From: Bacillota bacterium
GTDB lineage: Bacteria; Bacillota; DSM-12270; Thermacetogeniales; Thermacetogeniaceae
Reading direction: 5' to 3'
Length of the DNA: 64,000 bases
Assembly (NCBI GenBank): GCA_029907475.1
Contig: JARYLU010000004.1
Location: forward strand, 1 to 64,000
The notes under the pieces were generated by a model. That model saw nothing but the letters and a program-made list of their open reading frames with translations. It had not been told where the DNA came from and ran no database searches. The position numbers were made by a program, and so were the translations under genes. Positions within the stretch are counted from its first letter, which is position 1; the number at the start of each line of letters is the position of its first letter. This document shows, piece after piece, positions 43,542 to 45,649 of the stretch.

Positions 43542-44660
43542 TTATTGAAGGCTGCTAACCCGGTCTGCAGTACTCAAAATTTCAGTTATTCTCACTCCAT
43601 AACTCTCGTCGATGACTACAACTTCTCCTTTCGCAATCGGTTTCCCGTTCACGAGAATATCAACGGGTTCCCCGGCCAGCTTGTCAAGTTCTACAATTGC
43701 ACCAGGTCCCAGCTCGAGAATCTCTTTGATAGTTTTCTGAGTCCTTCCTAATTCCACCGTGAATTGAAGCGGAACATCTAAAATTAAGGTGAGGTTGGCT
43801 GTCTCTTTAGGCGTTGAAGTTGCCGAAAAGGAGGCAAATTCTACAGGTTGGACCATGACACTCCCTGCTGCTACTTCCTGGCGTGCTGCAGTGATGTGAG
43901 AATTACCGGGTTTAATTGGTATTTCCGGTTCGGAATAAGAAGCTGTTTCCGTCTCTTTTGTTTTTGATTCCTTCGGTTCGGAGGGAATTTTCTCTTCAAA
44001 TTCCCCAAGCAGGCCAAGGCTCATTTCTTTCGCGAAGTGAAGTGGAATAATCTGCATCATTTCGCTTTTTATGAGGTTTTCAATGGAGATTTGAAACACA
44101 ATTTTCACTAATTGCTCGTTTCCATATTCGATCGTTGGATCGAGTTGCTCCTTGGCAAAATTGATCAGCCGCAAGGAGGGAGGAGAGATATTTACCGTTT
44201 GATGAAAAATTGTAGACATGGATGTAGCAGCGGAACCCATCATCTGGTTCATGGCCTCGCTGACTGCGCTTAAATGGAGATCGTTTAGTTCTTCCGGCGG
44301 ATTACTCGCATCTCCCCCCATCATCAGGTCTACAATCACCGCGGCATCCTGCTTTTTAATAACTAAAAGGTTTTCTCCCGTAAGTCCTGCGGTATAACGG
44401 ACACTAACCACAACATAAGGTAAAGGGTATTCGGTTTGCAGTTCGCTTCGGGTCGTAATTGTCACCCGGGGCGTTGTGATTTCTACCCTTTTACCGATGA
44501 GACTGGAGAGGGTCGTAGCTGCCGCACCCATCGAAATGTTGGCAACTTCTCCTATGGCGTCTTTTTCGAGGTCCGAAAGGGTTTCCTCCTGTTTTTCCCT
44601 CGCTGTCTTTCCCCGCACCAGGATATCAATTTCTTCTTGGGATAAGATCTGCTCACTCAG
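43542..44660 (-). CDS. fliY: Flagellar switch phosphatase FliY, probable CUG start
   Basis: Switch protein with a CheC-like phosphatase half and a C-terminal FliN domain, 372 residues. The two CheC-like active sites are in IGEVANISMGAAATTLS and VSEAMNQMMGSAATSMS; the FliN part lies at about 290-370. A GTG at 44618 is the first standard start, but the bases upstream encode LSEQILSQEEIDILV, the conserved CheY-binding N-terminus. A CTG at 44660 begins this stretch. It has GGGGGAG 7 bases upstream and overlaps the fliM stop as CTGA. No ATG, GTG or TTG lies in this frame between it and fliM's coding body. Confidence 0.88.
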   Translation of the reverse strand: MSEQILSQEEIDILVRGKTAREKQEETLSDLEKDAIGEVANISMGAAATTLSSLIGKRVEITTPRVTITTRSELQTEYPLPYVVVSVRYTAGLTGENLLVIKKQDAAVIVDLMMGGDASNPPEELNDLHLSAVSEAMNQMMGSAATSMSTIFHQTVNISPPSLRLINFAKEQLDPTIEYGNEQLVKIVFQISIENLIKSEMMQIIPLHFAKEMSLGLLGEFEEKIPSEPKESKTKETETASYSEPEIPIKPGNSHITAARQEVAAGSVMVQPVEFASFSATSTPKETANLTLILDVPLQFTVELGRTQKTIKEILELGPGAIVELDKLAGEPVDILVNGKPIAKGEVVVIDESYGVRITEILSTADRVSSLQ

Positions 44661-45649
44661 GAAAAGTCTCCCCCTTTCTCTTGAAAGCTTGTAATTTGTA
44701 CGGCAAGCCGGTTGTTTTGAATTCCCGGTTTCGCGTAGAATTTCAGCCGGTTGCCAACCAGTACCTCCAGAGGAGAATTAACGCTGCGATCCAGCGGAAC
44801 AACATCCCCAACCTGGAGGTCGAGGAGTTCCCGGACTGTAATCGAGGTGGTTCCTAAAATAACCCGAAAGGAAATTTGGGCAGACTCAATCTTCTGCTTA
44901 AGGTAGAGAACATTTTCCTGTTTGTGTTCTTTTGGAGTTCTTGCAAACCAGTAATGGACGCTCAATTTTTCGATGATCGGTTCGAGCACAATGTAGGGAA
45001 TGCAAAAGTTAATAATGCCCTCCAGGTCTCCCACTCTCGTTTCTAAGGAAATTAAGATTACCATTTCCATTGGGGAAACGATCTGCGCAAACTGGGGATT
45101 GGATTCGATAAACTCCACCCGGGGGGTCAATTCTGTAATGTTTTCCCAGGCTTCTTTAGAGAGATCCAGCATCCGCTGGCTGATCCGTTCGACAATAGTC
45201 CGTTCAATTTCTGTGAGGGGACGCGTTTTCGCGGGGGTCCGGCCCGGTCCCCCAAAGAGCCGATCAATCATACCAAATACGATGGGAGGTTGGATTTCCA
45301 TAATTCCATTCCCCTCAAGGGGAGTCATGTTGAAAATAACAATGATCGACGGATCGGGCAGGGAGCGAATAAATTCTTCATATGTTAATTGTTCAACGGA
45401 AAGGACTGAAATTTGTACCGGGCTCCGCAGTTGGGCCGACAGAAAAGTTGTCAGCGACCTTGCATAATTCTCGTAAATCACTTGAAATGTATTAATTTGT
45501 TCCTTAGAAAATTTGTTGGGCCTGCGGAAATCATATACTCTTACTTTTTTTACCTGTTCCTCTTGTTTGAGTTCGTCTGCTGTTACCTCCCCTGTCGTAA
45601 GTACGGCCAACAAGGCGTCGATTTCAGCCTGGGACAGAATTTCAGCCAA
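44657..45649 (-). CDS. fliM: Flagellar motor switch protein FliM
   Basis: C-ring switch protein of 330 residues. The N-terminal CheY-P-binding motif is EILSQAEIDALLA (residues 3-15), followed by a CheC-like middle domain (about 40-225, with GGPGRTPAKTRPLTEIERTI) and a C-terminal SpoA/FliN-type domain (about 245-325). The TTG start has GGGGGTG upstream. It lies between fliL and fliY. Confidence 0.97.
   Translation of the reverse strand: MAEILSQAEIDALLAVLTTGEVTADELKQEEQVKKVRVYDFRRPNKFSKEQINTFQVIYENYARSLTTFLSAQLRSPVQISVLSVEQLTYEEFIRSLPDPSIIVIFNMTPLEGNGIMEIQPPIVFGMIDRLFGGPGRTPAKTRPLTEIERTIVERISQRMLDLSKEAWENITELTPRVEFIESNPQFAQIVSPMEMVILISLETRVGDLEGIINFCIPYIVLEPIIEKLSVHYWFARTPKEHKQENVLYLKQKIESAQISFRVILGTTSITVRELLDLQVGDVVPLDRSVNSPLEVLVGNRLKFYAKPGIQNNRLAVQITSFQEKGGDFS

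What the first reader, a model, noticed from the sequence alone, without database searches (positions are those of the whole stretch)
44640..44680. FliY appears to start at a CUG codon overlapping the fliM stop
The sequence shows the conserved FliY N-terminal CheY-binding motif (LSQEEIDILV) upstream of the first standard start. The frame offers no ATG, GTG or TTG before it, but a CTG sits 7 bases after GGGGGAG and overlaps the fliM TGA as CTGA. That is the same geometry as a coupled ATGA. If true, it is a non-canonical start that would lower FliY and tie it to FliM translation.
Basis: partly seen in the sequence, partly recalled or inferred. Interest (0 to 1): 0.55.

Follow-up and report, generated by a model that had tools for sequence, protein, structure and literature searches.

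The report
Conserved CUG start codon of fliY
A gene for a part of the bacterial flagellar motor switch appears to begin with the very rare start codon CUG, which relatives in three genera keep at the same place, so gene finders that allow only the three usual start codons would clip off the part that senses the chemotaxis signal.

Summary
On the minus strand fliY has no ATG, GTG or TTG before its CheY-binding motif. CTG at 44660-44658 overlaps the fliM TGA and follows GGGGGAG by 7 bases. Relatives settle most of the rest. The same codon is CTG in 7 of the 12 family genomes where a fliM-linked fliY start was read, in three genera; the other five have TTG (2), GTG (1) or ATG-GTG (2). One pattern finds a standard start there in 52 of 398 phylum genomes, 51 of them FliY and one FliM; with C it finds 6 of 398, all in this family. 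Protein-level constraint begins at the CTG. Among the candidate starts compared, CTG alone has a strong Shine-Dalgarno, in 7 of 7. GTG 44618 is not conserved. The overlap with fliM occurs in two phases, so one programmed frameshift cannot explain it. FliY very probably starts at this CUG. That the codon holds FliY low is inferred and untested. Rare-codon starts are a known kind (RepFIB rep CTG, sigR GTC, infC AUU); no CUG start of fliY appeared in the paper listings searched.

The parts
43542..44660 (-). fliY coding sequence as proposed, CTG to stop, 372 residues; flagellar motor switch phosphatase FliY
   Evidence: NCBIfam NF005995 FliY 4.1e-140, above its cut-off; Pfam CheC 2.3e-26 and FliMN_C 6.2e-27; the only match over the fliN model's cut-off in the genome
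44658..44660 (-). CTG (CUG) start codon of fliY
   Evidence: CTG in 7 of 7 genomes of genera g1, g3, g4 that could be read; standard start at the same codon in other relatives
44668..44674 (-). Shine-Dalgarno GGGGGAG (core AAAGGGGG 44677-44670), 7 bases before the CTG, inside the end of fliM
   Evidence: duplex with an assumed anti-SD -11.5 kcal/mol; -11.5 to -13.0 in 7 of 7 CTG genomes
44657..44659 (-). fliM stop TGA, sharing two bases with the CTG (CTGA)
44616..44645 (-). codons 6-15 of fliY, LSQEEIDILV, CheY-binding (EIDALL-type) motif
   Evidence: codon columns; EIDALL as CheY-P binding site of FliM and FliY in passages of PMC9126983
44616..44618 (-). GTG at codon 15, first standard start codon in the frame; rejected as the main start
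   Evidence: duplex -2.5 kcal/mol; CTG, CTT or TTA at this codon in the 6 CTG relatives
44657..45649 (-). fliM, TTG 45649 to TGA; upstream partner of the overlapping pair
   Evidence: TIGR01397 fliM_switch 4.7e-109; duplex -16.7 kcal/mol at its TTG

Best explanation
fliY is translated from the CUG at 44660, read by initiator tRNA as formyl-methionine, giving an N-terminus MSEQILSQEEIDILV. A ribosome that has just ended fliM, or a new 30S subunit held by the AAAGGGGGAG Shine-Dalgarno inside the fliM end, initiates there. Shown by computation: the codon's place, its conservation, where coding constraint begins, the Shine-Dalgarno, and the lack of a conserved alternative. Inferred: that fliM translation feeds it (termination-reinitiation), that CUG makes initiation inefficient and open to IF3 discrimination, and that FliY is thereby held at or below FliM as a limiting C-ring subunit. 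Confidence is 0.93 for the CUG as the principal start and about 0.4 for the dosage role; the number given in this field is for the start.
For: CTG at the aligned codon in 7 of 7 genomes of g1, g3, g4; FliY identity of the six relatives to the window 65-80%. Same pattern with A, G or T first: 52 of 398 phylum genomes, of which 51 are FliY (42 ATG, 6 GTG, 3 TTG) and 1 FliM; with C first: 6 of 398, all in family f1. Constraint starts at the CTG: codons 2-13, pairwise among 5 genomes, 47 identical, 46 synonymous, 27 non-synonymous; codons -6 to -1 give 25, 2, 33. SD duplex -11.5 to -13.0 in 7 of 7; -2.5 for GTG 44618; -0.9 to -4.6 for the Ile codon 5. In G004 and G015 the next standard start is codon 44. 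The fliM stop lies at +1 in 5 genomes and +5 in 2, so the CTG follows the fliY frame and SD, not the fliM stop. Control: ATT stands in the usual infC start region of the 17 infC genes found in the family, so the approach sees the known non-AUG start. The SD at the fliM start is stronger (-16.7).
Against: No protein or ribosome data. CUG starts are weak: a paper citing Hecht et al. gives about tenfold below TTG (PMC11983097 passage). Retention of the C alone is modest evidence: of 83 fliM codons ending in C in the window, 12 keep that C in all 5 CTGA genomes and 6 in all 7. G002 has in-frame TTGs 15 and 32 codons upstream inside fliM, and G011 a TTG at codon 6. The fliY SD is ordinary for this window: 27 of 73 other genes have one at least as strong, counting each gene's best candidate start, so no compensation is shown. 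The anti-SD was assumed: one search did not find the 16S end in this genome, and one search found CCTCC in 1 of 20 family genomes (G018). Very low output sits awkwardly with FliY being the only protein over the fliN cut-off in the genome.
Confidence: 0.93

Rival explanations
1. FliY starts at the standard GTG at 44618 (codon 15) and lacks the CheY-binding motif in this organism.
For: It is the first standard start codon in the frame.
Against: No Shine-Dalgarno (-2.5). The codon is CTG, CTT or TTA in the 6 CTG relatives, whose first standard starts fall at codons 6, 13, 14, 14, 44 and 44. Codons 2-13 are under protein-level constraint.
Confidence: 0.02
2. Initiation at the Ile codon 5 (ATC here, ATT or ATC in all 7), an infC-like start giving MLSQEEID.
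For: ATC or ATT in 7 of 7 CTG genomes, and ACT, AGT, GAA, GGC or GAT at that codon in the five family genomes with standard starts; infC in this family shows a start of that type.
Against: 19 bases from the SD; duplex only -0.9 to -4.6 in the right place. Codons 2 and 3 are conserved (S/T, E) with synonymous change. Relatives with standard starts have one at codon 1, and several of those also have Ile at codon 5.
Confidence: 0.03
3. A programmed frameshift at the fliM end makes a FliM-FliY fusion, so no start codon is needed.
For: The two frames overlap at the end of fliM.
Against: The phase differs: fliM stop at +1 in 5 genomes and +5 in 2, so one shift direction cannot serve all; TTTTCCTGA is not a good slippery site by inspection; standard starts occupy the place elsewhere.
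Confidence: 0.01
4. The C is a sequencing or assembly error in one draft genome.
For: The genome is a 114-contig draft.
Against: Seven separately held genomes share it, most with different flanking sequence.
Confidence: 0.005

Closest known systems
RepFIB rep gene of F-like plasmids, CTG start (PMC11983097, passages seen)
   Same: CTG start that works with a good ribosome-binding site; commonly annotated instead at a GTG 14 codons downstream, the same distance as GTG 44618 here; thought to be kept for just enough expression.
   Different: Plasmid replication gene whose start was shown by N-terminal analysis and by mutation (CTG to CTC abolished function); here a chromosomal flagellar gene and no experiment.
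sigR GTC start in Streptomyces (PMC5472188, passages seen)
   Same: Non-canonical start kept across a genus, extensive RBS, in a translationally coupled operon where subunit ratio matters; IF3 represses it.
   Different: GTC, not CTG; two species have GTT; IF3 control shown there, not here.
infC non-AUG start (IF3 autoregulation; as described in PMC5472188 passages)
   Same: Conserved non-AUG start under initiation-fidelity control; ATT in the start region in this family too.
   Different: Different codon and gene; an autoregulatory loop.
Stop-start overlapping gene pairs with termination-reinitiation (PMC6728339, abstract and outline seen)
   Same: Co-directed genes with overlapping stop and start and an SD inside the upstream gene.
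   Different: Described for ATGA and TGATG; here CTGA, or CTGAGTGA/CTGACTGA in two relatives.

Membership tests
FliY (CheC-like, FliN-domain switch protein) | CheC-like and FliN C-terminal domains, FliY equivalog model | tested here: met
   NF005995 4.1e-140 over cut-off; CheC 2.3e-26; FliMN_C 6.2e-27
FliY (CheC-like, FliN-domain switch protein) | N-terminal EIDALL-type CheY-P binding motif | tested here: met
   LSQEEIDILV at codons 6-15; motif as described in PMC9126983 passages; binding itself not tested
Genes with a CUG start codon | CTG at the conserved start position with no conserved standard start in reach | tested here: met
   7 of 7 genomes; no standard start upstream in 6 of 7 (G002 has two TTGs inside fliM); downstream ones not conserved
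Genes with a CUG start codon | Suitably spaced Shine-Dalgarno | tested here: met
   7-base gap; duplex -11.5 to -13.0 in 7 of 7, with an anti-SD typed from general knowledge
Genes with a CUG start codon | Start shown by N-terminal peptide or start-codon mutation | not testable with these tools
   needs an experiment
Termination-reinitiation coupled pairs | Overlapping stop and start of co-directed genes | tested here: met
   CTGA in 5 of 7 CTG genomes, 8-base overlap in 2 of 7
Termination-reinitiation coupled pairs | Downstream translation depends on upstream translation | not testable with these tools
   needs reporter mutants
IF3-repressed non-canonical starts (infC, sigR) | Expression rises in IF3 fidelity mutants | not testable with these tools
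   infC found in 17 of 20 family genomes; no expression data

The most novel reading that the evidence does not exclude
In this family the CUG is a retained governor: IF3-sensitive, inefficient re-initiation after fliM makes FliY the limiting switch subunit and so ties the number of completed C-rings, hence flagella, to the state of the translation machinery. In B. subtilis lacking EF-P, FliY is halved and the authors infer incomplete C-rings (PMC6613710 passages), which gives the idea footing.
Probability: 0.2. Interest if true: 0.65.

Novelty: new member of a known kind. Interest (0 to 1): 0.48.

Why it matters
[quoted passage not shown] a paper citing Hecht et al. gives 20 annotated CTG starts in nearly 85,000 genes (PMC11983097 passage). 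A CUG held at one place in three genera, in a core motor gene, is a natural case for asking whether weak starts are kept for dosage. It also warns that gene callers restricted to ATG, GTG and TTG would remove FliY's CheY-binding helix in these genomes and so mislead models of their chemotaxis. How public annotations of these genomes actually place the start was not checked.

Tried and rejected
Compensating strong SD: not supported; fliY's SD is ordinary (27 of 73 other window genes as strong). Relaxed initiator tRNA (an M1-like change at pair 30-40): the stem GGG-CTCATAA-CCC is present in 20 of 20 family genomes, so not supported, though other copies are not excluded. Wide use of CTG starts in this genome: 74 window genes were compared with five relatives, and 139 genes of the 138-kb contig with G001. 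Only genes with at least 10 open upstream codons were informative (26 and 31). Of those 31, 14 had half or more of the upstream residues alike; fliY is one, and the other 13 were looked at. Apart from one single-genome candidate (listed in passing) none gave a convincing non-standard start; several share a standard start, and a few look like overlapping or spurious frames. The output was cut, so part of its 14 genes was not seen; fliY scored low against G005 and G006, which I put down to indels. An internal FliN-like start inside fliY (as suggested for T. maritima FliY in PMC4832279 passages): ATG in the window genome only; of six relatives readable, G005 has GTGs there without an SD and the other five have no standard start next to the motif; dropped. 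Single origin of the CTG: the FliM tree needs 2 changes, one origin not ruled out. Own-genome anti-SD: not found; seen in 1 of 20. Order-level search held the same 20 genomes as the family. Papers: searches listed no report of a CUG start of fliY; I saw titles and abstract starts, and the lists of 21, 24, 26, 50 and 51 were capped (25 of 45, 25 of 7,429, 20 of 289, 10 of 24, 10 of 273). The hits were eukaryotic or viral by title. Most subscription papers are not in that library.

Full report
What is there. On the minus strand the window carries fliM (44657-45649, TTG start) followed by fliY. fliY belongs to the FliY family (NF005995, 4.1e-140; CheC and FliN domains). At the join: GGGGGAG 44674-44668, seven bases, CTG 44660-44658, with the fliM TGA at 44659-44657. 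Reading from the CTG gives L(M)SEQILSQEEIDILV. The frame is open for 39 codons upstream without ATG, GTG or TTG; the first standard start is GTG 44618, codon 15.

Relatives. The genome's family (f1) has 20 genomes held; 13 have a fliY-like match at 1e-40, and in 12 of them a fliM-linked fliY start could be read; in G003 the two matches have no fliM in the fetched stretch. Seven have CTG: G000, G001, G002 (genus g1), G004, G011, G015 (g3) and G005 (g4). G006 and G007 have TTG, G012 GTG, G013 and G016 ATG followed by GTG.

Outside the family. A pattern for CTG plus the FliY N-terminus matched 6 of 398 phylum genomes, all in f1 (G002 was not in that sample). The same pattern with A, G or T matched 52 of 398, none in f1. 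When these 52 places were fetched and compared, 51 encode FliY (42 ATG, 6 GTG, 3 TTG) and 1 encodes FliM. Many FliY genes in the sample do not fit this strict pattern, so the numbers are a like-for-like comparison, not a census. Of 80 loci from named genomes, 79 have a standard start within nine codons before the motif, and the last (L034) was missed by the motif expression though its duplicate G012 has GTG; of 19 loci from other families of the phylum, 19 have one.

Is the CTG the start? Coding constraint begins there. Among five divergent CTG genomes, codons 2-13 show 47 identical, 46 synonymous and 27 non-synonymous pairs, while codons -6 to -1 show 25, 2 and 33. Codon 1 is CTG in 7 of 7, while Leu codons 6 and 14 vary. 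The Shine-Dalgarno duplex is -11.5 to -13.0 kcal/mol for the CTG in 7 of 7, -2.5 for GTG 44618, and -0.9 to -4.6 for the Ile codon 5 (anti-SD assumed). GTG 44618 is not conserved; in G004 and G015 no standard start occurs before codon 44. Exceptions: G002 has in-frame TTGs 15 and 32 codons upstream inside fliM, and G011 a TTG at codon 6. Ile at codon 5 is shared by the seven and absent from the five family members with standard starts, which keeps an AUC/AUU start at codon 5 as a weak rival.

Relation to fliM. The fliM stop is at +1 (CTGA) in five CTG genomes and at +5 (CTGAGTGA, CTGACTGA) in two. So the CTG goes with the fliY frame and the SD rather than with the exact stop, and a fixed frameshift cannot explain all seven. 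In the five CTGA genomes the C is a third codon base of fliM that could change silently to T and give TTG. Of 83 fliM codons ending in C in the window, the C is invariant in 12 over these five genomes and in 6 over all seven, so retention of C is suggestive, not strong. On a FliM tree the CTG genomes need two changes, one origin not ruled out, and the five non-CTG genomes form a supported clade.

Is it special in its genome? First-standard-codon counts in the window were ATG 33, TTG 21, GTG 20 of 74 genes. Among 74 window genes against five relatives (26 informative) and 139 contig genes against G001 (31 informative), fliY was the one case with many synonymous changes before the first standard start that recurs in several relatives. 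One other gene on the contig may have a non-standard start in this genome alone. In infC, ATT stands in the usual start region in the 17 family genomes where it was found, in some with a TTG a few codons on; it serves as a positive control and suggests that start-codon fidelity control operates there. The initiator tRNA stem is ordinary in 20 of 20.

How it probably works. Ribosomes ending fliM, or subunits captured by the SD, start fliY at CUG with fMet. Published work: stop-start overlaps were strictly coupled in 13 of 14 pairs tested (PMC6728339, abstract); CUG initiation complexes are less stable than those at AUG, GUG or UUG (PMC11497404, passages); CTG gives about tenfold less than TTG in a reporter (cited in PMC11983097, passage); a sigR GTC start sets a subunit ratio and is held down by IF3 (PMC5472188, passages). 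In B. subtilis without EF-P, FliY falls by half and the authors infer incomplete C-rings that make no hooks (PMC6613710, passages). So a weak start could set flagellar number. None of this is shown for this organism, and FliY is the only protein over the fliN model's cut-off in the genome, fliM being the other, weaker match, so output cannot be very low in a motile cell.

Verdict. Observation confirmed; CUG start very probable; dosage role plausible and open. It is a new member of a known kind, notable for conservation across genera in a core flagellar gene. Searches for a printed report of a CUG fliY start (titles and abstract starts, several lists capped) showed none.

Noticed in passing
G000 contig C4 about 111654-112508 minus (outside the window; L182 7654-8508): ARMT1-like phosphatase gene (PF01937) in which the codon that is ATG in 11 of 11 homologous loci viewed (12 loci viewed of 20 fetched, own included) reads ACT, with ATA and CTG just upstream after AGAGGTGGG; a possible second non-standard start, in this genome only.
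   Followed up: partly
window 43854-43865, minus, inside fliY: ATG (43856-43854) before VQPVEF at the FliN domain with GGGAG just upstream, resembling the internal start suggested for T. maritima FliY; not conserved as ATG in the six relatives readable, though G005 has GTGs there.
   Followed up: yes
L162-L178, infC loci: infC in this family shows ATT (often ATA-ATT) in the start region, as known for IF3 genes.
   Followed up: partly
window, 74 genes compared: TTG or GTG is the first standard start codon in 41 of 74 genes; the first standard codon is not always the true start, so this is an upper estimate of non-ATG starts.
   Followed up: no
G003:C30 (L114) and G003:C63 (L115): Two fliY-like matches in one family genome with no fliM in the fetched stretches; the first has an ATG start.
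   Followed up: no
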